Source: Bacteroidales bacterium (GTDB lineage Bacteria > Bacteroidota > Bacteroidia > Bacteroidales > WCHB1-69). From it: 45,022 nt of DNA. The translations under genes and the position numbers were made by a program. The stretch's first letter is position 1, and every line of letters begins with the position of its first letter. The notes under the pieces are model-generated. The model saw only the letters and a program-made list of their open reading frames with translations, did no database searches and had not been told where the DNA came from. The DNA lies in contig JAGCFD010000022.1 of NCBI GenBank assembly GCA_017650305.1, positions 1 to 45,022 on the forward strand. Reading direction: 5' to 3'. Positions 2,618 through 44,828 of the stretch are shown here, piece after piece.

Positions 2618-2658
2618 TTGCTGTTAGCTATTGGCCGTTGGCTTTTAGCTGTTGATTA
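2618..2658. repeat. Heptamer array, TTRGCYN family, upstream of the RND pump start
   Basis: About six consecutive imperfect 7-bp units fit TTRGCYN (for example TTAGCTA, TTGGCCG, TTAGCTG). The array begins 6 bp upstream of the pump start codon, so on the minus strand it lies in the leader of that gene. It is the inverse orientation of the array at 2733-2760. Confidence 0.8.
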
Positions 2659-2732
2659 CAAAATATTATCTTTAATTATAACTGACAATGACTATTTGCT
2701 ACGATTCTTTACCTTTTGTCTATATAGGCAAA

Positions 2733-2760
2733 TGGCCAATAGCTAATAGCCAATGGCTAT
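2733..2760. repeat. Heptamer array, NRGCYAA orientation, overlapping the adaptor stop codon
   Basis: Four 7-bp units (such as TGGCCAA and TAGCTAA) are the reverse complement of the TTRGCYN family. The stop codon of the adaptor gene (CTA at 2757-2759, read TAG on the minus strand) lies inside the last unit. With the 2618-2658 array it forms a large imperfect inverted repeat between adaptor and pump genes. Confidence 0.8.
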
Positions 2761-3773
2761 TTATTCTCCACATTCACTTCCAGACCGTCTTTCAAACGTG
2801 CAAGTCCCGTGGTGGCCACCATGTCACCGTCCTGCACATTGCCGGAGAGCAGCTCGTAGGATTTGCCGAGGTGGCGGCCTATTTCAACTTTATTGAAGGA
2901 GACCTTGCCATCCTTATAAACATACACATAGCGGTTGCCGGATCCCTGTTGGCGGAAGATGGCCTCGTCGGGGACGACCACATGCTTCTCCGTGCCGAAG
3001 TTCATCGTCACACGAGCGTACATGCCCGGGCGCACGCGGCTATCCCCATTGGCCAGTTGGACCTCCACGGGGAAGGTGTGGGTAGCTCCGTCCATAGTCG
3101 GATAGATCAAGCTGATTTTACCCTTGAACTCCTCTTCGCCATAGGCATCCACCTTGATGGTCACCGGCGTGCCCACTTTAACCTGCTTGAAGAGGGTTTC
3201 GGAGATGTTGATGTTCATCTTCACGGGTGTGATCTGCTGTACCTGCACCACAGGCAGCCCACCGAAGAGGTCGCCACTATCATAGTTGCGCTGTGTCACA
3301 ACTCCGGAAATAGGACTTACCAATTGCGTATTCTCCAACAAGTTATCGTAGGTAGTCTGCGCCACATCGAGTTGGGTCTTCATCGCATCCCAGTCAGACT
3401 TGGAGCATCCGCCGACCTTGTAAAGCTCGTCAATACGATTAAAACTGGCCTTAAGATTATCCAGTTGAGACTTAGACTGTTTGAGGCTGTTCTCGTTCAT
3501 CTGCACGAGCACCTTGCCCTTGGCCACGCGGTCGCCGACCTCGACATAGATACGGTCGATGCGGCCGCCGGTGAGCGGGGCGATGTTGTTGACGGCGTTA
3601 GCCTCCACGATGGCCGTGTATTCGTAGGTCTGGTCCACCTGTTGCACATGCACTTGTTGCGTGCGGATGGTCATGATCTGACCGCCGGCGGTGACGGCCT
3701 CTTTCTTTTTGCAACCGCAGAGCATCATTACACCCACGGCCATAAGAATTGTTACATACGTTATTTTTTTCAT
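2757..3773 (-). CDS. RND efflux periplasmic adaptor (membrane fusion) lipoprotein, AcrA/MdtA-like
   Basis: This periplasmic adaptor bridges the inner-membrane RND pump and the TolC channel. The 338-residue protein starts with a lipoprotein signal (MKKITYVTILMAVGVMMLCGC) in which Cys21 would be acylated. After it come a barrel-sandwich half (TGGRIDRIYVEVGDRVAKGK), a short alpha-helical hairpin (about residues 90-150), the second barrel-sandwich half (LVSPISGVVTQRNYDSG) and beta-barrel and membrane-proximal domains (RVRPGMYARVTMNF). Length and domain order are normal. It is followed by the pump gene and preceded, 24 bp away, by the large T9SS protein gene. This is unusual, because tolC normally adjoins the adaptor directly in Bacteroidota. 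Confidence 0.95.
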   Translation of the reverse strand: MKKITYVTILMAVGVMMLCGCKKKEAVTAGGQIMTIRTQQVHVQQVDQTYEYTAIVEANAVNNIAPLTGGRIDRIYVEVGDRVAKGKVLVQMNENSLKQSKSQLDNLKASFNRIDELYKVGGCSKSDWDAMKTQLDVAQTTYDNLLENTQLVSPISGVVTQRNYDSGDLFGGLPVVQVQQITPVKMNINISETLFKQVKVGTPVTIKVDAYGEEEFKGKISLIYPTMDGATHTFPVEVQLANGDSRVRPGMYARVTMNFGTEKHVVVPDEAIFRQQGSGNRYVYVYKDGKVSFNKVEIGRHLGKSYELLSGNVQDGDMVATTGLARLKDGLEVNVENK

Positions 3774-3797
3774 ATTTTAGGTTAGTTAATTATATTC

Positions 3798-8885: not shown

Positions 8886-8904
8886 AATGTTATGGTTATA
8901 TGGG

Positions 8905-11018: not shown

Positions 11019-12392
11019 TTATTCCACACCCAACGTCGCGTCCAGGTTGGCTTTTGCCGTGAGGTAATTGAAGATGGACTGGCAATAGGTAAGCTGGGTG
11101 CTGGTAAGGGTCAGTTCGGCATTGCTCAGATCCAACCAGGTATTCATGCCCACCTCATATTGCTTCTGGGCTATCTCGTATGCCTTCTGGGCCTGGAGCA
11201 TGGTCTCGCGGTTGGCCGCGATGTCCTCAATGGCCTGTTGCATGTCGTTGAGATAGCTCTGCACGCCAACGCGAAGATTCCGTTCCACATCCAACCGTTG
11301 GTCGCGCATATTCTGGATGTTCAGGTCGGACTGTTTCAGCTTATAGGAAGTGGCCACCCAGGAGACGATAGGCACCTGGAGCGACAACGCCACGTATGAG
11401 TAGGGATAGTTGGTGAACTTCTGCCCGTCGTCGCCCATGCCGGAGTACTGGAACGCACCGGCTAAGGCAAGCATCGGCAGGGAGGCACCGCGGACAATCT
11501 TCTTGGACTGCTCCAACTCGCCGATGCCCAGATCCAACTGGCGCAGGGCGGAGTTTTGGGCGAGCTGAATATCCTGTTCGCTCGGCATGGTGGCATTGAG
11601 CACGCCCTGCTCATAGTCCGAAAGTTCCCCATCGAAGATAACGGGTTCTTCCATATTCATACCCAAAAGAACTTTGAGGCGCATTTGGGCGAGGCGCAGG
11701 CTCTTGACAGCGGAACTGATAGCCGGGCGCTGGTTCTGCAAGGTCACATCAGAACGCAGTTTTTCAAACTCGGAAACCAAGCCCTGGTTAAAGGAGTTGG
11801 TCACGAGCTGGTTGCTGGCCTCAATGTTGGCATAACTCTTCAGCAGCACATCGTACGACTGCTTGGCCAACAGATAGATGTAGTAGGCCTGTTTCACCTG
11901 GTTGACAAGCTCCAGTTTGGAGGAACGGGCCGCCTCTTGGGCCAGCTCGATGTCCATAGCACTGAGCTTGAGATTCGACCAGAGCGGGAAGGAGATGATC
12001 GGCAGGCTCAGGTTGGCCCCAACGGAGTAAGTGTTGTCACGGCCCACCTTGATGTTCATCGTCTGTCCGCCCATATCCATCGACATCGTCTGCTTGAGCA
12101 GCGTGCGGTTGTAGTTCGAAGCAAGCGACACGTCCGGGAAGAGGGCAGCGATCTGCTCTTTTCTGTAAAGTTGCTTAATCTGCACATCACGGTCGGCAAT
12201 GCGCATAGTCGGAGCATCCGAAAGTGCAATCTCAATGGCCTTGTTCAGATCCACATGGACGGAATCCTGCGCCTGAGCACGCAATCTTGAGGGCATCAGC
12301 AGAAGCAGGCAACCTGTCAAACATATTGTCACGAGAGACAGGGTCCGCTGATTTCGCATTATTTTCATCCGCATATCTTCCATATTACTCAT
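11019..12392 (-). CDS. TolC-family outer-membrane efflux channel
   Basis: This is the outer-membrane channel of the tripartite RND system. The 457-residue protein has a signal peptide (ending MPSRLRAQAQ) and two TolC-type repeats with long helical hairpins. The motif HVDLNKAIEIALSDAPTMRIADRDV marks the first repeat, and a second Q-L-A-Q-x-x-ALRQLDLG segment opens the second. The end KANLDATLGVE, with a hydrophilic tail, is usual for the family. The true start may be MKIMRNQ at 12368, which places the signal peptide closer to the N-terminus. It is the first gene of the minus-strand operon; a -7 box lies at 12462-12469. Its adaptor and pump follow only after two T9SS genes. Confidence 0.93.
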   Translation of the reverse strand: MSNMEDMRMKIMRNQRTLSLVTICLTGCLLLLMPSRLRAQAQDSVHVDLNKAIEIALSDAPTMRIADRDVQIKQLYRKEQIAALFPDVSLASNYNRTLLKQTMSMDMGGQTMNIKVGRDNTYSVGANLSLPIISFPLWSNLKLSAMDIELAQEAARSSKLELVNQVKQAYYIYLLAKQSYDVLLKSYANIEASNQLVTNSFNQGLVSEFEKLRSDVTLQNQRPAISSAVKSLRLAQMRLKVLLGMNMEEPVIFDGELSDYEQGVLNATMPSEQDIQLAQNSALRQLDLGIGELEQSKKIVRGASLPMLALAGAFQYSGMGDDGQKFTNYPYSYVALSLQVPIVSWVATSYKLKQSDLNIQNMRDQRLDVERNLRVGVQSYLNDMQQAIEDIAANRETMLQAQKAYEIAQKQYEVGMNTWLDLSNAELTLTSTQLTYCQSIFNYLTAKANLDATLGVE

Positions 12393-12461
12393 AAGAAATT
12401 ATCATAAAAATCTAAAAATCAAAATTTTAGCGAACAAATCCAGCATATTGTTCAAAGGTGG

Positions 12462-12469
12462 CAAAAATA
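12462..12469 (-). promoter_or_regulatory. -7 box of the tolC operon promoter
   Basis: CAAAAATA on the plus strand reads TATTTTTG on the minus strand, matching TAnnTTTG. It lies about 70 bp upstream of the annotated tolC start. No clear -33 TTG is present; an inverted repeat occupies that position instead. Confidence 0.6.
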
Positions 12470-12490
12470 GGAAAAATATTGAATAAATCC

Positions 12491-12505
12491 GTGTAAAAAA
12501 TACAC
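12491..12505. promoter_or_regulatory. Inverted repeat GTGTA-N5-TACAC, possible operator of the tolC operon
   Basis: A perfect 5-bp inverted repeat with a 5-A spacer lies about where the -33 element of the tolC promoter would be. Efflux operons are often controlled by TetR/MarR-type repressors at such sites. No regulator gene is present in the window, so this is positional inference. Confidence 0.3.
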
Positions 12506-12515
12506 GACCGTAAAA

Positions 12516-12660
12516 GTTGTCAGTTATCAGTTGTCGGTTGTCAGTTTGGAGGTTAAGGGTTTACCGTTTACGGTTTAAAAAGGTTAGAAGGTTAGGAGGT
12601 TAGTAGGTTAGAGGGTTATTCGATTAGACGATTAGGCGATTGGACGATTAGGCGATTAAT
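12516..12660. repeat. Mosaic of 7/8-bp arrays: GTTGTCA, GGTTAGNN and CGATTAGR families
   Basis: From 12516 a 7-bp family GTTGTCA runs about five units and decays into related GTTTAC units. From 12582 an 8-bp family GGTTAGNN has four to five units. From 12621 an 8-bp family CGATTAGR has five units. The families change abruptly but keep a similar unit length. Confidence 0.8.
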
Positions 12661-12718
12661 TGTTGGGGGTTAGAGGGTCAGAAGGCCACTCGGAGCAAAC
12701 TGCGCCTCCGAAGTATGA

Positions 12719-12796
12719 ATAATTAAGAAACTAAGAAATGAAGAAATTAAGGAATTATGTGCTCTTAGTTTCTTAGTTCCTTAATTTCTTAATTTG
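12719..12796. repeat. Inverted pair of 8-bp AAAYTAAG-type arrays
   Basis: The left arm (12719-12757) has roughly 8-bp purine-rich units such as AAACTAAG and AAATTAAG. The right arm (about 12765-12796) is its imperfect reverse complement (CTTAGTTT, CTTAATTT). Together they could form a long imperfect hairpin of about 30 bp. Confidence 0.75.
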
Positions 12797-12859
12797 TCAC
12801 TGTTCACTCTTCACTGATCACTGTTCACCGTTCACTGATCACTGATCACTGATCACTGC
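12797..12859. repeat. Heptamer array TCACTGN
   Basis: Nine consecutive 7-bp units fit TCACTGN with few mismatches. The array follows the inverted AAG-rich arrays directly. Confidence 0.85.
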
Positions 12860-12924
12860 TGGCTTGGCGAATTACGGTGTGACTGTTAAAGTTAAACTTT
12901 GAAGAATAATTCAAAAAAAATGTG

Positions 12925-12932
12925 TACTTTTG
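12925..12932 (+). promoter_or_regulatory. -7 box upstream of the CoA-transferase gene
   Basis: TACTTTTG matches TAnnTTTG and is followed by an 80-nt leader that contains the heptamer array at 12943-12977. A TTTG at 12898-12901 could be the -33 element, but its spacing (23 bp) is longer than usual. Confidence 0.55.
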
Positions 12933-12942
12933 CCCGCGTATT

Positions 12943-12977
12943 AGCCAACAGCTAATAGCTAACGGCCAATGGCCAAC
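12943..12977. repeat. Heptamer array, NRGCYAA orientation, in the CoA-transferase leader
   Basis: Five perfect-phase 7-bp units (AGCCAAC, AGCTAAT, AGCTAAC, GGCCAAT, GGCCAAC) lie between the promoter and the start codon of the next gene. Confidence 0.85.
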
Positions 12978-13013
12978 CGAATTCTATAGTAATCACAACA
13001 TAAACTTATCACA

Positions 13014-13658
13014 ATGAGTAAAATTATCACAGTTGAAGAAGCAGTTTCCCACATTCACGATGGCATGACCATCATGTTTGGCGGTTTTTTGGGCAATGGT
13101 TCCGCAGTCAAGATCATCGAAGGCATTGCCAAGAAGGGTGTCAAGGACCTTATTCTCATCGGCAACGACACTGCATATCCGAACCAGGCCATCGGCATGC
13201 TGATTGCCAACAAGCAGGTCAAGAAGCTCATTGCCTCCCACATCGGCACGAATGCCGACACCATCCAGCAGTTCAACGACAAGGAGTTAGAGATTGAGTT
13301 CGTACCTCAAGGCACGTTAGCAGAGCGCATCCGCTGCGGTGGCGCCGGACTTGGCGGCGTGCTCACCCAGACTGGTTTAGGCACTATCGTTGCTGAAGGC
13401 AAGCGCATCATCGAGATTGATGGCAAAGAGTATCTCTTGGAGATGCCGTTGCACGCTGACGTGGCCCTTATCGGTGCCAGCATCTGTGACGAAATGGGCA
13501 ACTGCATCTACAAGGGTACCTCCCAGAACTTCAACCCCACCATGGCCACCGCCGCTGACCTCGTCATCGTGGAGACCAAAGAGCTCGTCCCGACCGGTTC
13601 CATCCCCATGGAGCAGATCCACACGCCGGGCGTTTACGTTGACTATATCGTAAAATAA
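13014..13658 (+). CDS. CoA-transferase subunit alpha (AtoD/CtfA/ScoA-type), without adjacent beta subunit
   Basis: This 214-residue protein matches the alpha subunit of family I 3-oxoacid/acetate CoA-transferases over full length. Features seen include an N-terminal DGMTIMFGGFLGNGSA segment (the oxyanion or CoA-binding loop region), the central GTLAERIRCGGAGLGG motif typical of alpha subunits, and the C-terminal VPTGSIPMEQIHTPGVYVDYI. The family transfers CoA between acetate or butyrate and acetoacetate or similar acids, as in anaerobic amino-acid or butyrate fermentation. The catalytic glutamate is in the beta subunit, and none is encoded next to this gene. The following gene is unrelated and its ATG shares one base with this stop codon. 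The substrate is undetermined. Confidence 0.9.
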   Translation: MSKIITVEEAVSHIHDGMTIMFGGFLGNGSAVKIIEGIAKKGVKDLILIGNDTAYPNQAIGMLIANKQVKKLIASHIGTNADTIQQFNDKELEIEFVPQGTLAERIRCGGAGLGGVLTQTGLGTIVAEGKRIIEIDGKEYLLEMPLHADVALIGASICDEMGNCIYKGTSQNFNPTMATAADLVIVETKELVPTGSIPMEQIHTPGVYVDYIVK

Positions 13659-26182: not shown

Positions 26183-26184
26183 CT

Positions 26185-26219
26185 TTGGCCTTTAGCCATA
26201 GGCTATTGGCCTTTAGCAC
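26185..26219. repeat. Heptamer array TTRGCYN after the S4-protein stop codon
   Basis: Five in-phase 7-bp units (TTGGCCT, TTAGCCA, TAGGCTA, TTGGCCT, TTAGCAC) lie between the S4-protein stop (TAA at 26180-26182) and the nadA start. Confidence 0.85.
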
Positions 26220-26251
26220 TTTGGTAATTGATAACTATAAACATCATAATT

Positions 26252-27172
26252 ATGACAAAAGAAGATTTAGTGAATGAAATCAAACGTTTGCGTGATGAAA
26301 AAAACGCAATCATTTTAGCGCATTACTACACCCTGCCCGAAGTACAGGACATTGCAGACTTCGTGGGTGACAGTCTGGCATTGGCACGAAAGGCTGCCAG
26401 CACCGACGCCAGTATCATCCTGTTTGCCGGCGTGCATTTCATGGCAGAGACAGCCAAAATACTCAATCCCGACAAGAAGGTTTTGGTGCCCGACATGAGC
26501 GCAGGGTGCTGTCTGGCCGACAGCTGTCATGCCGCCGACCTGGCCCGCTTCAAAGAGGAGCATCCCGACTACCTGGTGCTCTCCTACGTCAACTGCACGG
26601 CTGCCGTCAAGGCACTCTCCGACCTGATTGTGACATCCGGCAATGCCTTGAAGCTCGTCAACACGCTGCCCGAAGATGCGAAGATTCTCTTCACCCCAGA
26701 CCAGAACCTGGGCGACTACATCAATCGTCAGACTGGACGCCAGATGTTGCTTTGGGATGGCATGTGCCGCATCCATGACCATTACACCATTGAGGATCTG
26801 GAGTTACTGAAAGAGTCCTATCCCGGTGTCAAGGTGGTGGCTCATCCCGAATGCCGCCGCGAATTCCTGGCACATGCCGACTTCGTCGGTTCCACAGCTG
26901 CCATGATCAACTTCATCTCAGAAAGTCCAGACAAAGAATTTATCGTAGCCACAGAGAGCGGCATCCTGCATGAGCTTAAAAAGCGCAATCCCGACAAAAC
27001 ATTCTACACGCTATACAATGGTGACCTTGCCCACGATTGCGGCAGCATGAAGAAAAACAATCTGGAAAACATCTATAGCGCTTTGCTTAACGAGGAACCT
27101 GAGTTGACCATGGATCCCGATTTGATGGCGAAATCCCTGGCTCCTATTAAAAAGATGCTGGAGTTGTCGTAA
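26252..27172 (+). CDS. nadA: Quinolinate synthase A
   Basis: NadA condenses iminoaspartate with dihydroxyacetone phosphate to quinolinate, a step of de novo NAD synthesis, using a [4Fe-4S] cluster. From ATG at 26252 it is 306 residues, the short form of the family; the upstream MITINIII extension is not family-like. Conserved segments are ILAHYYTLPEVQDIADFVGDSL, AGCCLADSC, SYVNCTAAVKA, WDGMCRIHDHY, HPECRREF and the DLAHDCGSMKKN end. Cluster cysteines are probably Cys86 or 87, Cys172 and Cys263. NadB and NadC are not in the window. A heptamer array begins at its stop codon. Confidence 0.95.
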   Translation: MTKEDLVNEIKRLRDEKNAIILAHYYTLPEVQDIADFVGDSLALARKAASTDASIILFAGVHFMAETAKILNPDKKVLVPDMSAGCCLADSCHAADLARFKEEHPDYLVLSYVNCTAAVKALSDLIVTSGNALKLVNTLPEDAKILFTPDQNLGDYINRQTGRQMLLWDGMCRIHDHYTIEDLELLKESYPGVKVVAHPECRREFLAHADFVGSTAAMINFISESPDKEFIVATESGILHELKKRNPDKTFYTLYNGDLAHDCGSMKKNNLENIYSALLNEEPELTMDPDLMAKSLAPIKKMLELS

Positions 27173-27290
27173 GCCGTTAGCCATTGGCCGTTAGCCATTA
27201 GCTGTTGGCCGTTAGCTATTAGCTATTATCGATTGGCCTTGAACTACCAACTATTATCTATTATCTATTAACTTTTAACTCTTAACTCTG
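27170..27290. repeat. Two fused heptamer arrays starting at the nadA stop codon
   Basis: From the TAA stop of nadA (27170-27172) about ten 7-bp units follow TTRGCYN to about 27240. The sequence then changes to about seven 7-bp units of an AACTNTT type to 27290. Phase is kept with few mismatches. The region separates the convergent nadA and Dus genes. Confidence 0.88.
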
Positions 27291-27312
27291 AAGAGTGCCC
27301 TCAGGCATATAA

Positions 27313-28236
27313 CTACCTCAGGTATTCCAAGGAGAGTGCGAAGAAGGGACTGAAGTCGTTGATTCGCAACAATGTTTTCAGTTCCGAAGCATCTATGCCC
27401 GCAAAAGAGGCATAGTAGTGCCACAACTCCTTTAAAATGAAGAGGGTGCTCTTTTCTTTGCGCGTCTCAAGCAATTCGTCGGCATAGTGCTGGTAATAGC
27501 GCAGAAAACGCTCTTTCACGTCACCAGTGTCCATCTCCTTAATCTCCTCGGCGAGAAAAGGATTGCAAAGGATTGGACGTCCCAGCATCCAGTCTTGAAC
27601 AGAAGGAAAACGCTCCTGCAGACGCTCATAATCCCCAACAGTCCAGACATCGCCACTATAAACCACTCGATGAGCAGTATGGTTCAGGCACTCTTGAAAG
27701 GCATCCAGGTCGGGAACACCCTCGTACAGTTGTTCTCCGAGACGGGGATGTATCACGATATATTCCAGCGGATAATCCTGCATCTTGTCGAGGATCTGCA
27801 GACTCTCAGACTTATCATGGAGTCCCAAACGCATTTTCAGAGAAAAATGGTAAGGAGTTTGTTCGGTCACCGCGCGCACCACGGACTCCACAATATCGGG
27901 GTGTGGCATCACACCGCAGCCACGCGTGCGACGGACCACCTGGTCCACAGGACAACCGATATTCCAATTGAACGAGGTATAGCCATATTCCTGATGCAGC
28001 TCGTTCAGCGTATCTAAAAAATGGGCAGGGTTATTACCCATCAACTGCGGGGTTGTCGGACGACAAGCATTATTCCGTGGCCACAAATCTTTCCACTTGC
28101 GCACATTCAGCTTGGACTTCTCCTGTACAGGCAAAAAGGGTGTAATAAAATTGTCTATGCCACCGACATGGCGACATAGACAATTTCTAAATTGAAAGTT
28201 CGTAATCCCGTCTAAGGGAGCCAACCAAAGACGCAT
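27313..28236 (-). CDS. tRNA-dihydrouridine synthase family protein (DusC-like)
   Basis: Dus enzymes reduce specific uridines in tRNA to dihydrouridine using FMN and NADPH. The 307-residue protein has the usual N-terminus (LWLAPLDGITNFQFRN), the FMN-binding PQLMGNNP, and the catalytic-cysteine motif FNWNIGCPVDQVVRRTRGCGVM (Cys95). Further on are SLKMRLGL, the VIHPR segment and YSGDVWTVGDYE. The last part (about residues 235-307) is the helical tRNA-binding domain. The ATG follows the stop of the upstream T9SS protein gene with no gap, so translation may be coupled. The family assignment is sure; which uridine is modified is not. Confidence 0.92.
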   Translation of the reverse strand: MRLWLAPLDGITNFQFRNCLCRHVGGIDNFITPFLPVQEKSKLNVRKWKDLWPRNNACRPTTPQLMGNNPAHFLDTLNELHQEYGYTSFNWNIGCPVDQVVRRTRGCGVMPHPDIVESVVRAVTEQTPYHFSLKMRLGLHDKSESLQILDKMQDYPLEYIVIHPRLGEQLYEGVPDLDAFQECLNHTAHRVVYSGDVWTVGDYERLQERFPSVQDWMLGRPILCNPFLAEEIKEMDTGDVKERFLRYYQHYADELLETRKEKSTLFILKELWHYYASFAGIDASELKTLLRINDFSPFFALSLEYLR

Positions 28237-29205
28237 CTATCTGATTATCACTTTTTTAGTAATTATTTGAGCATCAGACTGCAGGCGCAGCATGTAGGCG
28301 CCGGCAGGCAGTGAAGAAACGGAAATCATCTCTTGGCCTTCGCCGTTTCCAGACAGCAGCAAGCGTCCAGTAAGATCATGCAGCTGATAGGAGAAACGAC
28401 CTTCGGGGGATTGGATAGTCAACTGGTCAATAGCCGGATTCGGGAAGATGGCGAAAGACTTTTTCTGATGATCTTCCACGGCGACATTGCTGTAGTTCAA
28501 GGTCACATCATCCACGATAAGCGTGGTATTCTCATGTGTTTGAAGTCCGCCTGCGACGATAATGATACAGAGGCTGTCGCATGCAGAGAGCGGGTTGTCG
28601 AATTGGGCTTCAATCTGGGTATATTCATTCATAGTGGTCCCAGTTGTAAAATAGGCGTAAGATACCGGCACCCCATTGCTTTTGGTGAAGGCTGTCACGA
28701 TAAGGGAATCGCCCTCTTCCGGCATGAATTTGACCCACATTTTGATACCGTATGGTGTGGAAGTGCACACATCACCAGGGGCCACCATCCCTGCCAAAGA
28801 AGAAAGCGTGGAGACATCGCTGAAGTCTATATCAGAGAAGTTGCCTTGGGCGATGTCCAAGATCAGGGACAACGGGATGTTGAACCCCGTTGATGTTCCC
28901 AGTTGTGCGATACCGGGCAGCAGATAGCTATATTCGGTACCGGGCACGCCAAAGGTGGCAGGATGAAGTTGCAGAGCATAGGATCCGCCATGTGAATCCG
29001 TTGTGGAAGCGCCGAAGCTTACAGAAACGGGGATGGGGATCTCAAGACCTGGGACAAGTTCGGTCAAAATATTGCCATTCAAACTGGTAGTCCAGGAAAC
29101 CGGTTGATTATTACTCCAGTTCTCAAAACCGTTATTGGGAAGTGTTTGGGCTTGCAAGCAAACCATCGACAACAACATTAAAAAGGTAAAAATCGATTTT
29201 TTCAT
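28237..29205 (-). CDS. Secreted carbohydrate-binding-like protein with T9SS type-A sorting domain
   Basis: The 322-residue protein has a signal peptide (MKKSIFTFLMLLSMVCLQAQ). Its central jelly-roll-like region opens with LPNNGFENWSNNQPVSWTTS and contains YALQLHPATFGVPG and an ACDSLCIIIVAGG...LIVDDVTLNY ending. This pattern recalls PCMD and carbohydrate-binding-type modules of Bacteroidota surface proteins. The C-terminus is a T9SS type-A sorting domain (IFPNPAIDQLTIQS, LHDLTGRLLLSG, SLPAGAYMLRLQ, TKKVIIR). The ligand is unknown. It shares a junction with the Dus gene, an unrelated housekeeping function. Confidence 0.85.
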   Translation of the reverse strand: MKKSIFTFLMLLSMVCLQAQTLPNNGFENWSNNQPVSWTTSLNGNILTELVPGLEIPIPVSVSFGASTTDSHGGSYALQLHPATFGVPGTEYSYLLPGIAQLGTSTGFNIPLSLILDIAQGNFSDIDFSDVSTLSSLAGMVAPGDVCTSTPYGIKMWVKFMPEEGDSLIVTAFTKSNGVPVSYAYFTTGTTMNEYTQIEAQFDNPLSACDSLCIIIVAGGLQTHENTTLIVDDVTLNYSNVAVEDHQKKSFAIFPNPAIDQLTIQSPEGRFSYQLHDLTGRLLLSGNGEGQEMISVSSLPAGAYMLRLQSDAQIITKKVIIR

Positions 29206-29250
29206 AATAATTTGATGTTTATGTTAAGAAAATAATTATCGCAAAACTTA

Positions 29251-32068: not shown

Positions 32069-32874
32069 ATGACAAGCAGCAACGAGATATTCGACAGATC
32101 CTAACTTTTGTTAGGCGACACCGTGTTTGAGGCGCTCCAGAACACGCGGGTGATCCTCTTCGGCGTGGGCGGAGTCGGCAGCTGGTGTGCCGAAGGGCTG
32201 ATTCGCAGCGGCATCGGTCATCTGACCATCGTGGACAGCGACTCCGTCAGCGTATCCAACATCAACCGACAGCTGATGACCACCACCAAGACCGTCGGAC
32301 AGCCCAAGGTGGAGGTGCTGCGGGAACGCCTGCTCGACATCAACCCGGATGCCGACATCACAGCCTTGCAGGAGATTTACTGCGCAGAGACAGCAGCCCG
32401 TTCCAGCTGGAGACATACGACTATGTCATTGATGCCATCGACAGACTGAGCAACAAGGTGCAGCTCATCCTGCACGCCACCAGTCTGGATGTCCGGTTCT
32501 TCTCCGCCATGGGCGCCGCGCTGAAGGTGGACCCGTCCAAGATCCGCACAGGAGAGTTCTGGGAGATCAAATACTGTCCGCTCGCCCGGATGCTGCGCAA
32601 ACGATTCAAGAACCTCAACCAATATCCATCCAAAAAATTCCAGTGCGTCTATTCACCTGAAGTACTACCAAATATAGGAGCCGTATCAAACTCTGAAACA
32701 GAAAATTGTCAAGATGATAACGTTGAAGAAAAAGCGGTGGGAGCCTCAAGCTGGGATTTGCGCAAGGCGCAGACCAATGGGTCGCTGGTGCACATCACCG
32801 CCATCTTCGGGTTCACATTGGCAGGGCTGGTGGTGGAAGAGATGTACCAACAAGAATTAAAAATTAAAAATTAA
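32069..32874 (+). pseudogene. tcdA: Disrupted tRNA threonylcarbamoyladenosine dehydratase (TcdA/CsdL)
   Basis: TcdA cyclises t6A37 of tRNA to ct6A with ATP; it is a ThiF/E1-like enzyme. A natural start at 32069 reads MTSSNEIFDRS and meets an in-frame TAA at 32102-32104 where relatives have a glutamate (S-E-L-L-L-G); a single G to T change would make it. The frame then continues through ILFGVGGVGSWCAEGLIRSGI, VDSDSVSVSNINRQ and EIYCAET. Near 32390 it shifts by -1 into SSPFQLETYDYVIDAIDRLSNK, which continues intact to 32874. Two independent lesions argue for a pseudogene, though sequencing error is possible at either. A TTG at 32108 could start a shorter product, still frame-shifted. Period-7 repeats cover its stop. 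Confidence 0.85.
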
Positions 32875-32888
32875 GAATCAAAAAATGA
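32854..32888. repeat. A-rich heptamer array across the tcdA stop codon and next start
   Basis: Five 7-bp units of RAATTAA type (GAATTAA, AAATTAA twice, GAATCAA, AAAATGA) cover the end of tcdA, encode its last residues and contain the TAA stop and the ATG of the next gene. Confidence 0.65.
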
Positions 32889-33658
32889 AAAGAATCCTTA
32901 CGATTGCTCTTGTTGTTTCCTGTTGCATAGTTTCTTACGCTCAGGACACTATCATATTGCGCAATGCTAATGAGATTCAGGCCAAAGTGCTTTTGGTGGG
33001 CATCAATGACATCACTTACAAAAAATGGGACTATCAGGACGGCCCTAGCTATCAGATTGCCAAACAGGAGGTGTTTTGCATCAAATATGCTAATGGGACC
33101 AAGGAAGTTTTCGGCCAAGCGTCATCCTCTCCAAAAGAGACAAGCACGTCTAATGTATCGACAAAAAACAGAAAGCTCGACCCGTTTTTCAATGCCTACT
33201 TTGAAGGAGGATGTATTTTCACAACTGGCGAAGCGGGCCCGATGTTGAATGTCACTATTGGCTTTCATCTTTCTGAGCAAACATTTGTAGGTATTCAATC
33301 CGGCATAGAGGCACTATTTGGCTCATCGGCTGCCGATGTTGCAGGCTTCGACATGGCATCCTTTCCATTAATGGCTGATTTTCGGGCTCTTTATCCATTT
33401 AAAAATGCACCAGCCTATTTCTATATGGAATGTGCTCTGGGCGCAACTTTCCTCACCCGATTTGGACAGGGCATTTTCTATCAAGGACAGTATTATTACA
33501 TACCCACCATGGCCATATTCCGTTTTCAACCGGGCTTGGGCTTTAACTATAAACGAGCCACCATCAGTGCAGGTTATTCTCTCTTCCACATTCAGAAAAA
33601 AAACAATGTACATTGCGGCTATGTGAAGGTGGGCATACGTTTGGGAAAGCTGAAATAA
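32885..33658 (+). CDS. Exported protein with small N-terminal domain and outer-membrane beta-barrel
   Basis: The 257-residue protein has a signal peptide (MKRILTIALVVSCCIVSYAQ). A compact domain follows at about residues 21-75 (DTIILRNANEIQAKVLLVG, DITYKKWDYQDGPSYQIAKQEVFCIKYANG), a pattern common in exported Bacteroidota proteins. After a Ser/Thr/Lys linker comes an eight-strand-like barrel: alternating hydrophobic strands such as FNAYFEGGCIFTT, MLNVTIGFHLS, TFVGIQSGIEAL, AYFYMECALGATFLT and HCGYVKVGIRLG with a near-terminal aromatic pattern. The function is unknown. The ATG lies 11 bp after the tcdA stop. Confidence 0.75.
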   Translation: MKRILTIALVVSCCIVSYAQDTIILRNANEIQAKVLLVGINDITYKKWDYQDGPSYQIAKQEVFCIKYANGTKEVFGQASSSPKETSTSNVSTKNRKLDPFFNAYFEGGCIFTTGEAGPMLNVTIGFHLSEQTFVGIQSGIEALFGSSAADVAGFDMASFPLMADFRALYPFKNAPAYFYMECALGATFLTRFGQGIFYQGQYYYIPTMAIFRFQPGLGFNYKRATISAGYSLFHIQKKNNVHCGYVKVGIRLGKLK

Positions 33659-33812: not shown

Positions 33813-35429
33813 ATGGCTAAAACATTATTCTTAGGAGATGAAGCCGTTGCCCAAGCAGCATTGGACGCCGGCTTATCGGGCGTGTACGCATATCCGGGCA
33901 CCCCATCGACAGAGATCACAGAGTTTATTCAGAATTCCAAACAGGGCCGTGAGGGTCAGGTGCACAGCATCTGGGCTGGCAACGAGAAGACTGCCATGGA
34001 ATCCGCGATCGGCATGTCCTATGCCGGCAAACGTGCCATGGTCTGCATGAAGCATGTGGGTTTGAACGTTGCTGCCGACCCCTTCATGAACTCCTCCATC
34101 ACAGGCGCCAACGGCGGTTTGGTAGTGGTAGTGGCTGACGATCCGTCGATGCACTCCTCACAGGACGAACAGGACTCTCGTTTCTTCGGCAAGTTCGCCT
34201 TGATCCCCTTCTACGAACCCTCCAACCAGCAAGAGGCCTACGACATCACGTATGCCGCTTTCGAGTATTCTGAGAAATATCACACGCCGGTTCTGATCCG
34301 TCTGACCACGCGTCTCTCCCACTCCCGCGCAGGTGTGGAGCGCAAGGAGGCCCGTCCGCAGAACCCGCTGCACATCGAAGAGAACCCGAAACAGTTCATC
34401 CTGTTGCCGGCCAATGCCCGCGTGCACTATCGCACCTTATTAGGCAAGCAAGAGGCTTTCGAGAACGAGTCTTTGAACTCCCCATTCAACAAATACATCG
34501 ACGGTGCCGACAAGAAGATGGGTATCATCGCTTCCGGTATCGCTTATAACTACTTGATGGAGAACTTTGAGAATCATCAATGCCCCTACCCTGTCCTGAA
34601 GATCTCCCAATATCCGCTGCCTTCCAAACTCATCGCCAAGATGGTGGACGAGTGTGAGACGGTCTTGGTGGCCGAAGAGGGTTATCCTTTCATCGAGGAG
34701 CAGGTACGTGGTATCCTGAACCGCACGGGCAACATCATCGGTCGTTTGAGCGGTGCGCTGCCTCGTGACGGCGAGTTGAACCCGAACCTGATTGCCAAGG
34801 CCCTCGGTCTTCCCGACACCTACGGCATGCCCGTTCCAGAGCTTGTGGTTCCGCGTCCCCCGGCCTTGTGTGTCGGCTGTCCGCACATCGACTCCTACCT
34901 GGCCATCAACGAGGCCATGGCTGAGCACGGCAAGGGCAAAGTCTTCGCCGACATCGGCTGCTACACCTTGGGCGCACTGCCTCCCTACAACGCCATCTAC
35001 ACGACAGTGGACATGGGTGCTTCCATCACAATGGCCAAGGGTGCCGCCGACGCTGGCTTGCGTCCTGTGCTGGCCGTCATCGGCGACTCCACCTTCACGC
35101 ACAGCGGCATGACCTCCCTGTTGGACTGCGTCTATGAGAACACACCCGTCACGGTGATGATTCTGGACAACAGCACCACTGGCATGACCGGTGGTCAGGA
35201 CTCTCACGCATTGGGTGTCTTGGGCGAGATCTGCAAAGGCCTGGGCGTCAAGGAGGAGCACATCCACCGTATCACCCCGTTGAAGAAAGACCACGAGGCT
35301 AACGTGGAGCTCATCAAAAAAGAGTTAGCTTACGAAGGTGTCTCCGTCATCATCCCGACTCGTGAGTGCATCCAGACCCTCAGCCGTCGCATGAAGAAAC
35401 AACAGGCCGCCAAGAAAGCTAACAGCTAA
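33813..35429 (+). CDS. iorA: Indolepyruvate ferredoxin oxidoreductase, alpha subunit (short form)
   Basis: IorA with IorB oxidatively decarboxylates aryl pyruvates from aromatic amino acids to aryl-acetyl-CoA, reducing ferredoxin. The 538-residue protein contains the pyrimidine domain (FLGDEAVAQAALDAGL, AYPGTPSTEI, GAMESAIGMSYAGKR-like EKTAMESAIGMSYAGKRA), the CVGCPH motif and the thiamine-diphosphate region (FADIGCYTLGALPP, GDSTFTHSGMTSL, ILDNSTTGMTGGQ). It ends at IIPTRECIQTLSRRMKKQQ without the C-terminal 2[4Fe-4S] ferredoxin domain of archaeal IorA (about 590-650 residues). The final Ala-Asn-Ser and stop are encoded by a heptamer array. Confidence 0.93.
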   Translation: MAKTLFLGDEAVAQAALDAGLSGVYAYPGTPSTEITEFIQNSKQGREGQVHSIWAGNEKTAMESAIGMSYAGKRAMVCMKHVGLNVAADPFMNSSITGANGGLVVVVADDPSMHSSQDEQDSRFFGKFALIPFYEPSNQQEAYDITYAAFEYSEKYHTPVLIRLTTRLSHSRAGVERKEARPQNPLHIEENPKQFILLPANARVHYRTLLGKQEAFENESLNSPFNKYIDGADKKMGIIASGIAYNYLMENFENHQCPYPVLKISQYPLPSKLIAKMVDECETVLVAEEGYPFIEEQVRGILNRTGNIIGRLSGALPRDGELNPNLIAKALGLPDTYGMPVPELVVPRPPALCVGCPHIDSYLAINEAMAEHGKGKVFADIGCYTLGALPPYNAIYTTVDMGASITMAKGAADAGLRPVLAVIGDSTFTHSGMTSLLDCVYENTPVTVMILDNSTTGMTGGQDSHALGVLGEICKGLGVKEEHIHRITPLKKDHEANVELIKKELAYEGVSVIIPTRECIQTLSRRMKKQQAAKKANS

Positions 35430-35444
35430 TAGCTAATGGCCAAA
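35417..35444. repeat. Heptamer array, NRGCYAA orientation, containing the iorA stop codon
   Basis: Four in-phase units (AGCTAAC, AGCTAAT, AGCTAAT, GGCCAAA) begin inside the last codons of iorA. The iorA stop TAA (35427-35429) lies in the second unit. Confidence 0.85.
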
Positions 35445-37532: not shown

Positions 37533-39932
37533 ATGCACCGTTTTTCTATATATCTCCCACTCTTCGCATTAGTCGCTTTGCTGTTTTCATCCTGCCGGTC
37601 CACTCGGATCTTGTCGGATGGGGAGTATATGCTTATTAAAAACAACGTAACGGTGAACGATGCCAAGAGTCCTGACTTTGACAATCTGCGCTCATACACG
37701 CGCCCCTTGCCCAACAAAAAGTTCATGGATGTCTTCAACGTCAAGACGATGGCTTATGCCGCGGGATATCCCCGCACCGACAATAAGGGCATCGTACATG
37801 ACTCGAAATTCAAGAAGTGGATGCGAACCAAAGTCGGCGAACCGCCCGTTCTTCTGGACAGCGCAGAAATTGACAATTCCATGTCGCAACTGGACATCGT
37901 CATGAATCAACTCGGCTATTTCGACAACGAAATAGATTTCGAGGTAAAACACAAGAAATCCAACTACAAAAAAGTACGTGTTGAATACAACATCACGGCC
38001 CATGACCCATATTTCATCAGTAGCATAAACTACAACATCGACATTCCACAGTACAAAAAAATCATTGTGCTCAACCAGAGAGCGTCATTGCTTTCGGCAG
38101 GCATGCAATACAATGAGAACGTCATCAATGAAGAGTTGACCCGTATCATCAACCTTATCAGAGATGAGGGCTACTACTACGTGGAGAAATCCAATATCCG
38201 CTGCATCGTCTCTTACGACGAGGCACAAGACTCGGCTTCCACCGATCCCAAGACTGTTTCCTTAGAGATACTCATGAAGATACCGGAACACGAGAATGCC
38301 AACCGCTATCTTTACAAATACTATTTCAACGACGTATATATCCACACCAATTTCGATGCGGCGGCACCTGAAGGTCAGCAGTATGACACGGTCTTATACC
38401 AGGCCAAATTCAAATTTGACAGCACACGCTATTATTTCATAACTCCGCATGTGGCAGACGGCGGTTATCGCATCAAAGACTTCAACTATCCCGTCATCGC
38501 CTCCACCATCAGCAGTCGGACAGGCATTCCATACTCCCAGTACGTCAAGAGAAACAGCAGCCGGGCATTAAACCTGCTTGACAACTTCACCTACACCAAC
38601 ATCTCCTACCGCGAACGGGAGGACCTGCTTGACACCAACAAAAAAATCGGGTATCTGGATTCCCATTATCTGCTTACCAGACAGAAAGTACACAGTATCG
38701 GAGGGCAGATAGACCTTCGCAACGACAAGTCGGCCATCTCCTTCACCTACACAAACCGCAACATCTTCAAAGGGGCCGAGCATTTGACTTTGAACATGTC
38801 GGCCGGTTATTTCTACTACTCCCTACCCAACCTGTTCAAGCATGACAGGGCCTACTCGTATCCTGAATTCAACATCTCAGCCTCGTTGGATTTCCCTAAA
38901 TTGTTCCTTTTCAAGAACTACCAACGGAGGGACGGCATCAAGTACAACACTTCCATCGACTTGGGCGTCAACTACTCAGGATTATATGGAAAACTCATGT
39001 ATTTTGCCGCTCTCACATACAATTGGAGTCCCAATTTCTACACCAACCACAGTTTCTCCCCCATCGACATTTCCACCATCAACAACAACGACAAGCGATA
39101 CGCCAACATCCTCAACATCTACAAATATCCAACCTCCTACCAGAATCGTTTCGGAAAGTTCATGCTGTTCTCGATGGAGTACAGTTTCAACTATCTGGTG
39201 CCGTTCTCCGGAAACAAGCGGAAGCACAACATGCGCATATCCATCAATACTGAGTCCACCGGACTGCTTCTCAAAGGGTTGAATGCACTTTTCACCCCAG
39301 ATCACAGATGGATTTTCGGCCGCAATTCTCTTGACACCACCGGTTACAACTACAGCACCATGGAACGTCTGGAGTTTACTTGGAACTACACCTACAAAGT
39401 CAACAACAACAATGCCTGGGCCATGCGGTTGAATGCAGGCGCCATTATTCCCATTGACAAAGATTCATACGTCCCTTACGAAAGAGGATTCTATTTAGGT
39501 ACGAGCAACAGCATGCGTGGTTGGGGCTATCGCGGACTGGGTCCGGGGTCGTACGAGCGCGAGCGCGACAGCCTGTATACCGGCGACATCAAGATAGAGC
39601 TGAACCTTGAATGGCGCGGAACCATTTACCGCTCCTTCAAATATGGTATCTTCACTGACATTGGAAACATCTGGCTGGCCCGCAAGAACGACGACATGCC
39701 CAACGCTGAGTTCTCCTTCAAACGTTTCTACAAAGAGTTGGCCGTGGATGTGGGCGTAGGATTGCGATTAGACTTCGACTTCTTCGTCTTGCGTTTGGAC
39801 TATGCCCTACCCATCTATGACCCGACACGCACTTCATACGGAGGGTGTGTGCTAAACGAAGAATGGTTTGACGGCCCAAGAAGACTGCGCTTTGGTGACG
39901 GCCTGAAGATTGCGATCGGGTACGCGTTTTAG
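37533..39932 (+). CDS. tamL: TamL-type Omp85 outer-membrane assembly lipoprotein
   Basis: The protein is an Omp85-superfamily barrel thought to help insert outer-membrane proteins or lipids. The 799 residues start with a lipobox (LFSSC, Cys21), a feature of Bacteroidota TamL. POTRA-like domains follow (about 30-330) and then a C-terminal beta-barrel. The Omp85 motif RGW/RGF is visible as SMRGWGYRGLGPGSY, and the last strand ends LKIAIGYAF. Length is normal. It follows mreD by 3 bp, making an mreC-mreD-tamL envelope operon. The partner TamB is not in the window. A heptamer-like array starts at its stop codon. Confidence 0.9.
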   Translation: MHRFSIYLPLFALVALLFSSCRSTRILSDGEYMLIKNNVTVNDAKSPDFDNLRSYTRPLPNKKFMDVFNVKTMAYAAGYPRTDNKGIVHDSKFKKWMRTKVGEPPVLLDSAEIDNSMSQLDIVMNQLGYFDNEIDFEVKHKKSNYKKVRVEYNITAHDPYFISSINYNIDIPQYKKIIVLNQRASLLSAGMQYNENVINEELTRIINLIRDEGYYYVEKSNIRCIVSYDEAQDSASTDPKTVSLEILMKIPEHENANRYLYKYYFNDVYIHTNFDAAAPEGQQYDTVLYQAKFKFDSTRYYFITPHVADGGYRIKDFNYPVIASTISSRTGIPYSQYVKRNSSRALNLLDNFTYTNISYREREDLLDTNKKIGYLDSHYLLTRQKVHSIGGQIDLRNDKSAISFTYTNRNIFKGAEHLTLNMSAGYFYYSLPNLFKHDRAYSYPEFNISASLDFPKLFLFKNYQRRDGIKYNTSIDLGVNYSGLYGKLMYFAALTYNWSPNFYTNHSFSPIDISTINNNDKRYANILNIYKYPTSYQNRFGKFMLFSMEYSFNYLVPFSGNKRKHNMRISINTESTGLLLKGLNALFTPDHRWIFGRNSLDTTGYNYSTMERLEFTWNYTYKVNNNNAWAMRLNAGAIIPIDKDSYVPYERGFYLGTSNSMRGWGYRGLGPGSYERERDSLYTGDIKIELNLEWRGTIYRSFKYGIFTDIGNIWLARKNDDMPNAEFSFKRFYKELAVDVGVGLRLDFDFFVLRLDYALPIYDPTRTSYGGCVLNEEWFDGPRRLRFGDGLKIAIGYAF

Positions 39933-39965
39933 GAGTTGTCAGTTAGGAGTTTGGAGTTGTAAGTG
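39930..39965. repeat. Heptamer array GGAGTTN starting at the tamL stop codon
   Basis: About five 7-bp units of the GGAGTTG/TCAGTTA type begin with the TAG stop codon of tamL and decay after 39958. Confidence 0.6.
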
Positions 39966-40199: not shown

Positions 40200-40230
40200 C
40201 GGCATCATCATTCAAAAAAATCTGACATAT

Positions 40231-41655: not shown

Positions 41656-41798
41656 GCCCTAACCCACCCTAACCACAAGCACAGATACGCGGAGATTGTC
41701 AGAGACCATCTTCTACAAACACCGATTCATACAGACAAGAGCTTTCTGTGAGCAAATGGAATCTGCATGACGAGCAGAGATCATATCAAAAAAATGTG

Positions 41799-41806
41799 TA
41801 CATTTG
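41799..41806 (+). promoter_or_regulatory. -7 box of the decarboxylase-like gene
   Basis: TACATTTG matches TAnnTTTG, 61 bp before the ATG at 41867. The other 140 bp of this gap show nothing I can support. Confidence 0.6.
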
Positions 41807-41866
41807 CACTGCTTTTTGAGGAAGCAATACTTTAAATTAACTATTTAACTATCAATCATTTACAAT

Positions 41867-43654: not shown

Positions 43655-43666
43655 TCCATAATAGCT

Positions 43667-44536
43667 ATGGAATCCTTTTTTGCGCATAAGAGTCGCGGGG
43701 TGCAGTTATTGTATCTGGCGCTGTTTTTCCTCATTGGCCTCATCGTTGCCACGGGTATTTCCATGTTGCTCACTTGGCTTTGCTTTGGCTCTCCGAATGC
43801 GGCAGAATCGAGCAATCCATTGGCGGCATTGTATTTACAGTCGGCGGTGGCCTCCATCGGTTCTTTTTTGGCTCCGGCGCTCTTGTTCGCCTATTGTCAG
43901 GACCGTCAATGGTGGCGCTACAGCAGTGCAGACCGGAAACCTGCTTACCATCTGGTCAACGTCACGCTAATCCTCTCCATCATCATCTTGCCGTTAGTAG
44001 CTTTGTTGGGACAGTGGAATGAGGCCATCCCGCTACCGGAGGCTTTGCAACAGATGGAAGACGCGGCCAACGACGTCTTAGAAAAGCTGATGCAGGACCA
44101 CTCCTACGCCACCCTCTTCCTCAACATCATCGTGCTTGGCTTAATACCTGCCGCAAGCGAAGAGTTTCTTTTCAGAGGAGCCCTGCAACCGTTCCTCACC
44201 GACTGGACGCGCAAACCGCATCTGGCCATTTGGCTTACCGCCTTTATCTTCAGCGCTATACACCTGCAATTCGCGGGATTTATCCCAAGATTCCTCTTAG
44301 GCGCCTATCTGGGATACCTCTGTTACTGGAGCCGTTCTCTTTGGCTGCCCATCCTGGCCCATTTCCTGCACAACGCGCTCACCATCATGGTCTCTTTCAC
44401 GCTGGCCGGAAGAGGTATTGACCTGGAGAACATCAAGTTCACACAAATCCATGGAGCTCTCCCCATGATCATCACCTGCGTTGTGGGCACTTTCATCAGC
44501 TTGGTGTTCATGTGGAAGACGAAGGACGCTGAATAA
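43667..44536 (+). CDS. CPBP family intramembrane metalloprotease
   Basis: CPBP (CAAX prenyl protease and bacteriocin-processing) proteins are glutamate-type intramembrane endopeptidases. The 289-residue protein has about eight transmembrane segments and the motifs PAASEEFLFRG (Glu165, Glu166, Arg170), AFIFSAIHLQFAGFIPRFLLGAYLGYLCY (His in motif 2) and ILAHFLHNALTIM (motif 3). Relatives process peptides, confer immunity to bacteriocins or take part in signalling; the substrate here is unknown. It starts 12 bp after the decarboxylase-like gene and probably shares its transcript. An octamer-based array begins 4 bp after the stop. Confidence 0.92.
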   Translation: MESFFAHKSRGVQLLYLALFFLIGLIVATGISMLLTWLCFGSPNAAESSNPLAALYLQSAVASIGSFLAPALLFAYCQDRQWWRYSSADRKPAYHLVNVTLILSIIILPLVALLGQWNEAIPLPEALQQMEDAANDVLEKLMQDHSYATLFLNIIVLGLIPAASEEFLFRGALQPFLTDWTRKPHLAIWLTAFIFSAIHLQFAGFIPRFLLGAYLGYLCYWSRSLWLPILAHFLHNALTIMVSFTLAGRGIDLENIKFTQIHGALPMIITCVVGTFISLVFMWKTKDAE

Positions 44537-44539
44537 GAA

Positions 44540-44828
44540 CACAAAGGGGGTTACCACAAAGGGCACAAAGGAGGTTACCGCAAAGGCACAAAGGACACAA
44601 AGAGGGTTACCGCAAAGGCACAAAGGACACAAAGAGGGTTACCGCAAAGGCACAAAGGACACAAAGGGGGTTACCGCAAAGGGCACAAAGGGGGTTACCA
44701 CAAAGGCACGAAGGACACAAAGGGGGTTACCGCAAAGGCACAAAGGGCACAAAGGGGGTTACCACAAAGACACAAAGGGCACAAAGAGTTATACCACTAA
44801 GGCACGAAGGACACAAAGGAGATTTTCG
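44540..44828. repeat. Tandem 24/32-bp repeats built of 8-bp modules (CACAAAGG type)
   Basis: About ten copies end in GGTTACCG or GGTTACCA. Most are 32 bp, two are 24 bp. All lengths are multiples of an 8-bp module of the CAAAGGCA/CAAAGGAC/ACAAAGRG kind. A low-complexity reading frame (44481-44873) spans it but is a by-product. Similar CACAAAGGACACAAAG repeats occur, from memory, in intergenic regions of several bacterial phyla. Confidence 0.9.

What the first reader, a model, noticed from the sequence alone, without database searches (positions are those of the whole stretch)
2618..44828. Period-7 and period-8 tandem arrays anchored at stop codons across the window
Imperfect arrays with a 7- or 8-bp unit occur between genes at 2618-2658, 2733-2760, 12516-12859, 12943-12977, 26185-26219, 27170-27290, 32854-32888, 35417-35444, 39930-39965 and 44540-44828. 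The unit sequence differs (TTRGCYN, TCACTGN, GGTTAGNN, CGATTAGR, AACTNTT, CAAAGGCA), but unit length is conserved. Seven arrays start at, contain, or follow within about four bases the stop codon of a gene: the adaptor, S4, nadA, tcdA, iorA, tamL and CPBP genes. A 7-bp unit containing TAA or TAG yields stops in all three frames. This could be a translational or transcriptional backstop, or the footprint of a slippage or template-switch process at transcript ends. I know of no description of such a class.
Basis: partly seen in the sequence, partly recalled or inferred. Interest (0 to 1): 0.72.

Follow-up and report, generated by a model that had tools for sequence, protein, structure and literature searches.

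The report
Polar seven-base repeat arrays between genes
The gaps between genes in this bacterium are often filled with repeats of a seven- or eight-letter word, a known type of DNA stutter, but here they tend to start right at the ends of genes and mostly point the same way away from them, for reasons still unknown.

Summary
In 422 kb of this genome, intergenic DNA has 29 period-7 and 11 period-8 arrays where shuffles give 0.25 each. Array ends lie at stop codons more often than random placement allows (35 against 21.7, 52 arrays), and the gene's own stop triplet recurs at +7 and +14.

The class is known: heptamer simple-sequence arrays, described in cyanobacteria, Beggiatoaceae, Xanthomonas and some Bacteroidetes. 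Between two relatives, 8 of 11 larger indels in alignable array gaps are multiples of 7 or 8, so slippage-type growth is likely. A backstop, hairpin selection and a reverse transcriptase are not supported.

The G-rich strand runs outward from each flanking gene, whatever its direction, in 254 of 323 arrays. Where one gap holds both polarities, G-rich comes first in 58 of 58. This was seen in the window's genus, a Chitinophaga and an Oscillatoria. One paper reports the same geometry for one heptamer type. The cause is open: selection near gene ends, or a process starting at DNA ends.

The parts
2620..2653 (+). TTRGCYN period-7 array; starts 8 bp outside the longest-ORF start (2612) of the '-' gene; outward
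2727..2757 (-). TTRGCYN period-7 array abutting the stop of the HlyD-type gene 2757-3773 (-); outward
12515..12577 (+). AGTTGTC then GTTTACN period-7 arrays in a divergent gap
12580..12658 (+). GGTTAGNN then CGATTAGN period-8 arrays
12721..12757 (+). TAAGAANN period-8 array, left arm of an imperfect inverted pair
12763..12795 (-). TAAGAANN period-8 array, right arm of the pair
12797..12858 (-). AGTGANN (read TCACTGN on +) period-7 array with 21-bp higher order
12943..12976 (-). TTRGCYN period-7 array 37 bp before the start of the CoA-transferase gene 13014-13658
26183..26234 (+). TTRGCYN-type period-7 array directly after the TAA of the S4-domain gene; other units or none in relatives
27168..27234 (+). 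TTRGCYN period-7 array overlapping the stop of nadA; kept in 4 of 5 relatives, absent in G049
27242..27292 (-). AACTATT (AGTTNNN-type read on -) period-7 array, right half of the convergent nadA/dus gap
32852..32891 (+). TTAARAA period-7 array overlapping the stop of ORF 32458-32874 and the next start
35417..35444 (-). TTRGCYN period-7 array overlapping the stop of the POR/TPP gene; an exception to the polarity rule
39929..39958 (+). AGTTNNN period-7 array starting in the TAG stop of the Omp85-family gene
44540..44828 (+). compound CACAAAGG array (units 8/9; 24, 32, 88 higher order) starting 4 bp after the stop of the Rce1/CPBP gene

Best explanation
These are heptamer/octamer simple-sequence arrays of a known kind. 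They arise and change by tandem duplication and deletion of 7- or 8-base units (slipped-strand replication or unequal exchange), and persist in the part of an intergenic region that carries no needed sequence, which begins at the stop codon. A first duplication that spans the stop codon leaves the protein intact, so the stop is often the first copy of the unit. SHOWN: the period, stop anchoring, stop in register in a subset, indels mostly of unit multiples between two relatives, turnover of unit family at one site, and the polarity (G-rich strand outward from both flanking genes). INFERRED: slippage as the molecular step, and immediate purifying selection near gene ends as the likeliest cause of polarity (G-rich repeats tolerated just after stops but not in the 7-60 bp before starts). 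I give slippage plus stop tolerance about 0.75 and the selective cause of polarity about 0.45.
For: Period spectrum (Chitinophaga 68 period-7 arrays, other lags from 4 to 12 give 0-6, no shuffles run there). G020 against G013: of 23 syntenic gaps 13 hold arrays; in the 8 of these that align at 0.93 identity or more, 8 of 11 indels of 5 bp or more are multiples of 7 or 8 (7, 7, 7, 14, 14, 35, 56, 56; the others 10, 15, 31). Orthologous nadA gap with about 5-10 units in 5 of 6 species, none in G049, stop position kept. A different unit or none at the S4 gap in most species. Units within an array are more alike than genome-wide expectation (38 of 163 neighbours against 18.6 in the genus; 185 of 426 against 38.3 in the mixed loci). 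Stop triplet recurs at +7 in four array-bearing samples, clearly at +14 in three of them, and not in the array-free Leptolyngbya sample; ATG does not show it. 49 of 180 stop-flush arrays have the stop in register. TAG is the stop in 20 of 32 gene-array pairs at TTRGCYN arrays against 227 of 865 genes. Array ends within 6 bp of stops 117 against 65.6 expected, of starts 38 against 51.4, for 200 arrays. Polarity depends on distance: 134 of 156 within 30 bp of a stop but 16 of 37 beyond; 58 of 60 at 7-60 bp from a start. This fits selection near gene ends.
Against: Replication slippage alone cannot know on which side the gene lies, so it does not give the polarity. Array-free gaps have almost no such base skew (51% outward), so a general preference for UTR composition is not seen. 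Near gene ends the most perfect (youngest-looking) arrays are the most polar: 98 of 104 at lag identity 0.85 or more against 31 of 44 below 0.75, which suggests polarity at birth, or very strong selection. The same unit families recur at many loci and in genomes of several phyla, which local slippage does not predict. Neighbouring units are no more alike than other units of the same array (38 against 31.7, sd 3.8; 185 against 195.4, sd 4.4), and in G000 alone not even more alike than the genome-wide rate (6 of 75 against 0.121). Five of the 13 array gaps of G020/G013 did not align well enough to judge, or changed by replacement.
Confidence: 0.7

Rival explanations
1. End-directed growth: at a break in an intergenic region both 3' ends are extended by slippage-prone, G-biased addition in 7-8-base steps, then rejoined. 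This would leave G-rich strands running outward from both flanks and meeting head to head, as at fused telomeres.
For: Order G-rich then C-rich in 58 of 58 mixed gaps, in all four gene arrangements (29, 19, 7 and 3 gaps); TTRGCYN clusters + then - in 32 of 33 in loci from many taxa; most perfect arrays most polar; the gap 12392-13013 has +++--- between two conserved flanks that relative G010 keeps without the block.
Against: Polarity fades beyond 30 bp from a stop (16 of 37) and 200 bp from a start (4 of 9). No reverse transcriptase (PF00078) was found in array-rich G000, G004, G020, G050 or G051, so a telomerase-like RT is not needed; of the 8 genomes with one, four are array-rich (G005, G008, G013, G017) and four array-poor (G001, G019, G023, G047). 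The two halves often hold unrelated units. No break was observed.
Confidence: 0.15
2. RNA hairpins or bidirectional terminators: palindromic TTRGCYR units and inverted pairs are kept because they fold in 3' UTRs.
For: TRGCYR is self-complementary allowing G-U; the variable positions are mainly R, Y, R in G000; inverted pairs are common.
Against: Real arrays fold no better than arrays with R/Y/N drawn at random (mean z +0.41 on the TTRGCYN strand in both sets); in loci of other taxa the last position is not mainly R (G 201, T 154, A 130, C 76); by reading, most other units are not self-complementary; hairpins do not explain why G-rich comes first; no Rfam match in the window.
Confidence: 0.1
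3. Translational backstop: units carry stops in all frames to end read-through.
For: 129 of 180 stop-flush arrays have at least 0.5 sense stops per unit.
Against: 99 of 180 have as many on the antisense strand, and polarity does not differ with sense-stop content; start-side and divergent arrays exist and are polar.
Confidence: 0.05
4. A mobile fold-back element (MITE-like) with array ends.
For: Inverted + - pairs, e.g. many in Chitinophaga hostae.
Against: By reading, spacers and units differ from gap to gap and between relatives at the same gap; no formal search for shared spacers or target duplications was made.
Confidence: 0.05

Closest known systems
Long simple-sequence repeats of 5-11 nt, heptamers most abundant (Mrazek et al. 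2007; known here only as cited in PMC4679880 and PMC4692102)
   Same: Unit length 7, intergenic, proposed slippage linked to polymerase contact length
   Different: Here unit sequences are often degenerate and shared between loci, with stop register and polarity measured
TAACTGA heptamer arrays (MacGregor 2015, PMC4679880; abstract and sections 3 and 10 read)
   Same: TAACTGA is the reverse complement of TCAGTTA, that is AGTTATC of the AGTTNNN arrays here; found in Bacteroidetes and Cyanobacteria; in Beggiatoaceae and Flexibacter litoralis mostly just before starts in the orientation that is 'outward' here
   Different: That paper reads them as translational regulator sites; its sample of Microcystis sets (6 forward, 8 reverse to a start, 8 between stops) shows no clear agreement with the rule
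GGGAATC / GGGGA(C/T)T heptamers of Xanthomonas and Nostoc (Rehm et al. 2015, PMC4692102; sections 13 and 16 and passages read)
   Same: Close to ORF ends; [quoted passage not shown] length variation between relatives
   Different: One G-quadruplex-forming unit type; here the rule is seen for many units in other taxa
STRR heptamers of cyanobacteria (name recalled; three tandem heptanucleotides in Calothrix are mentioned in PMC4692102)
   Same: Tandem heptamers
   Different: Not compared by sequence here

Membership tests
Heptamer long simple-sequence repeats (LSSR) | Tandem unit of fixed length 5-11, longer than chance | tested here: met
   periods 7 and 8, 29 and 11 against 0.25
Heptamer long simple-sequence repeats (LSSR) | Mainly non-coding | tested here: met
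   coding 1 and 0 at lags 7 and 8
Heptamer long simple-sequence repeats (LSSR) | Length change by whole units | tested here: met
   8 of 11 indels of 5 bp or more are multiples of 7 or 8 in eight alignable array gaps;
TAACTGA repeats of MacGregor | Unit TAACTGA or its reverse complement | tested here: inconclusive
   AGTTATC units occur mixed with AGTTGTC, AGTTAGN etc.; no pure count was made
Rehm GGGAATC repeats | G4-forming unit GGGAATC or GGGGA(C/T)T | tested here: not met
   Units in this genome are TTRGCYN, AGTTNNN etc.; only the geometry is shared
RT-made (telomerase-like) repeats | A reverse transcriptase in array-rich genomes | tested here: not met
   PF00078 in 8 of 40 same-genus genomes, absent from array-rich G000, G004, G020, G050, G051; present in array-rich G005, G008, G013, G017
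REP/BIME palindromes | Single 20-40 bp palindrome with a conserved head and RAYT transposase | not tested
   Arrays are tandem, not one palindrome; RAYT was not searched

The most novel reading that the evidence does not exclude
Intergenic heptamer arrays in several bacterial phyla follow one polarity law (G-rich strand outward from both flanking genes, G-rich before C-rich in mixed gaps) because they are made at DNA ends: 3' ends at intergenic breaks are extended in 7-8-base steps by a non-RT polymerase and then fused, leaving scars like interstitial telomere fusions.
Probability: 0.13. Interest if true: 0.85.

Novelty: new variant of a known kind. Interest (0 to 1): 0.5.

Why it matters
Heptamer arrays have been noted separately in several groups with different proposed roles. 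A polarity rule independent of unit sequence and gene direction, seen in more than one phylum, ties those reports together and limits any mechanism: it must know which side the gene lies on. It also gives a simple test (are new arrays polar in mutation-accumulation lines?) for a question open since heptamers were first reported as over-abundant.

Tried and rejected
Hairpin selection: real TTRGCYN arrays are not better folded than random-R/Y/N ones (42 genus arrays, 41 folded; 135 from mixed loci, 133 folded; those over 90 bases left out). Reverse transcriptase as maker: absent from five array-rich genomes, present in four others. Stop codons as cause of polarity: equal polarity in stop-rich and stop-poor units, and no stronger when the stop is in register (36 of 48 in register, 113 of 138 not). 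T/A skew as the polar property: none (162 of 310). Background skew of gaps: 51%; the four-mers TTAG/TTGG were skewed outward in array-free gaps (130 against 83), a result against a perfectly clean baseline. My first reading that neighbouring units are independent (G000 only) was not general: units of one array are alike, though neighbours no more than others.

Weak or contrary samples: G000 alone is less polar (28 of 42; 35 of 57 at a looser cut). The TTTGANN unit shows no polarity (9 of 15) and CGATTARN is split 2 to 2. Relatives G004 and G042 gave 1 of 6. TTRGCYN arrays in the mixed loci are polar by GC skew in only 40 of 58. In Oscillatoria the stop recurrence is clear only at +7 (11 of 142; 7 and 5 at +14 and +21 are within background). 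The closest pair by one locus, G020/G054, shared only 6.7 kb with the fetched stretch and was of no use. In one search one array-free gap (46559-46976) was not truly alignable and was left out of the indel count, as were five array gaps below 0.93 identity.

Limits: genes were called by my own ORF and hexamer script, so stops are exact but starts approximate; loci had a cruder caller. Family '+' strands were named after seeing G000; the GC-skew tests do not depend on that. Arrays in related genomes are not independent, so p-values overstate. Rows dropped before the polarity counts: arrays inside genes, gaps over 3 kb, |G-C| below 2 and sides differing by less than 5 bp. Literature: 7 searches in an open-access library; a statement of polarity elsewhere may have been missed.
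Full report
What is there. The window is contig 42 of a 2.09 Mb genome in 66 contigs, 84.65% complete. TRF, a lag scan and direct reading confirm tandem units of 7 or 8 bases at the ten listed places. In the window plus 377 kb of the same genome, lag-7 and lag-8 self-similarity in intergenic DNA is far above dinucleotide shuffles (29 and 11 against 0.25 each), with nothing comparable at lags 2-6 or 10-12 and almost nothing in coding DNA. Units fall into families: 7-mers TTRGCYN, AGTTNNN, AGTGANN, CTTTGAA and TTAARAA, 8-mers GGTTAGNN, CGATTAGN, TAAGAANN and others; several recur at more than one locus. TTRGCYN times 2.7 with one mismatch gives 350 places in the genome and its reversed control none. 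CACAAAGGACACAAAG with up to two mismatches gives 40 and none.

Stop codons. For 52 arrays in this genome's sample, 35 array ends lie within 6 bp of, or over, a stop (21.7 expected by random placement in the same gap, maximum 29 in 2000 trials); starts are avoided (13 against 18.3). In G020 the figures are 61 against 31.2 and 17 against 26.8 for 118 arrays. Without any array detection, the gene's own stop triplet recurs at +7, +14 and +21: 19, 23, 14 of 339 genes here (other offsets from +3 to +22: 4-12); 23, 18, 15 of 289 in G020 (2-13); 23, 30, 19 of 322 in Chitinophaga (4-14); in Oscillatoria only +7 stands out (11 of 142; 7 and 5 at +14 and +21, other offsets 1-8); 0, 2, 1 of 108 in an array-free Leptolyngbya sample. 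ATG upstream of starts shows no such series. So the stop is in register with the array in a subset: 49 of 180 stop-flush arrays. In the nadA gap the stop stays in place whether or not an array follows.

Growth and turnover. Between species of the genus the same gap can hold another unit family or none (S4 gap), a conserved family with about 5-10 units (nadA gap), or an array that others lack (29167-29250; 12393-13013, where G010 keeps both flanks without the block). Between G020 and G013 (about 88% identical over 38.5 kb), 13 of 23 syntenic gaps hold arrays. In the eight of these that align at 0.93 identity or more, 8 of 11 indels of 5 bp or more are multiples of 7 or 8; the other five gaps were replaced or aligned poorly. 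Array load varies from 0 to 483 TTRGCYN matches within the genus, 38 of 40 genomes having some. This is the behaviour of simple-sequence arrays changing by duplication and deletion of units.

Polarity. The unlooked-for result is that arrays point the same way relative to the genes. Family by family in seven genus samples, 131 of 167 matches run outward. By GC skew alone, which needs no family definition, the G-rich strand runs outward in 254 of 323 arrays, 77-81% in each of the four gene arrangements. By sample: G000 28 of 42, G020 91 of 106, G013 22 of 26, Chitinophaga 43 of 51, Oscillatoria 54 of 72, the five other relatives 16 of 26 together; Leptolyngbya contributed none. In the loci drawn from many taxa: arrays other than TTRGCYN 44 of 55, TTRGCYN 40 of 58; array-free gaps of the genus 51%. 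Where one gap holds both polarities, G-rich precedes C-rich in 58 of 58 (46 of these from G000, G020, Chitinophaga and Oscillatoria). By unit family in the genus the count was 27 to 1. TTRGCYN clusters in the taxonomically mixed loci: + before - in 32 of 33. Polarity is strong within 30 bp of stops (134 of 156) and 7-60 bp before starts (58 of 60), weaker within 7 bp of called starts (22 of 34), and lost further from stops (16 of 37). Near gene ends it is strongest in the most perfect arrays (98 of 104). Exceptions exist, among them the window's own array at 35417-35444.

How it most likely works. Slippage-type unit duplication makes and changes the arrays. They survive where no needed sequence is lost, which begins at the stop codon, and a duplication that includes the stop does no harm. 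Slippage alone gives no polarity, so something must read the side on which the gene lies. The nearest-end dependence favours selection on what the array does near a start or a stop; the high polarity of the most perfect arrays and the order in mixed gaps leave room for a process that starts at DNA ends. Hairpins, stop-codon backstops, a reverse transcriptase and a fold-back element were considered and are weaker.

What is known. MacGregor 2015 (PMC4679880; abstract and sections 3 and 10 read) described TAACTGA heptamer arrays in Beggiatoaceae, Cyanobacteria and five Bacteroidetes. The unit is the reverse complement of the AGTTATC form here. Positions in the Beggiatoa genome and in Flexibacter litoralis (forward, just before starts; one set reversed, just after a stop) agree with the outward rule; the Microcystis sample (6 forward, 8 reverse to a start, 8 between stops) does not clearly. 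Rehm 2015 (PMC4692102; sections 13 and 16 and passages read) described GGGAATC-type heptamers and the same geometry without explaining it. Both cite Mrazek 2007 for the excess of heptamers, which I did not read. A short mention in Thiomargarita (PMC4853749, passages) adds nothing on polarity. In the searches made (listings apart from the papers named) I found no statement of a polarity rule that holds across units and gene arrangements.

Verdict.

Noticed in passing
window 12558-12658 and L170 (G010, gap orthologous to window 29167-29250): The same order of units (GTTTAC heptamers, then CGATTAGN octamers) appears at unrelated loci of two species, as if compound arrays were copied between loci.
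   Followed up: no
L185:9045-9241 and L186:10254-10497 (G020): G+C-rich palindromic elements (CCCCCCTAAAGGGGGG, GCCCGAAGGGC) recur in array-bearing gaps of G020 and G013; they look like a MITE or REP-like family.
   Followed up: no
window 44540-44828: The CACAAAGG compound array with 24-, 32- and 88-bp higher order; its core pattern has 40 matches in this genome (some within this array), none for the reversed control.
   Followed up: partly
window 28135-28236: A near-perfect inverted repeat (ATTGTCTATGYC / GACATAGACAAT) at the start of the Dus-family gene is kept, with small changes, in four relatives; function unknown.
   Followed up: no
window 23323-23482: In-frame 15-bp repeats inside ORF 23158-25320, unrelated to the intergenic arrays.
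   Followed up: no
Chitinophaga hostae G060 C1 (L198-L217): Many inverted TTRGCYN pairs with the + arm first and the arms tens to a few hundred bases apart; good material for testing a fold-back element or terminator role.
   Followed up: partly
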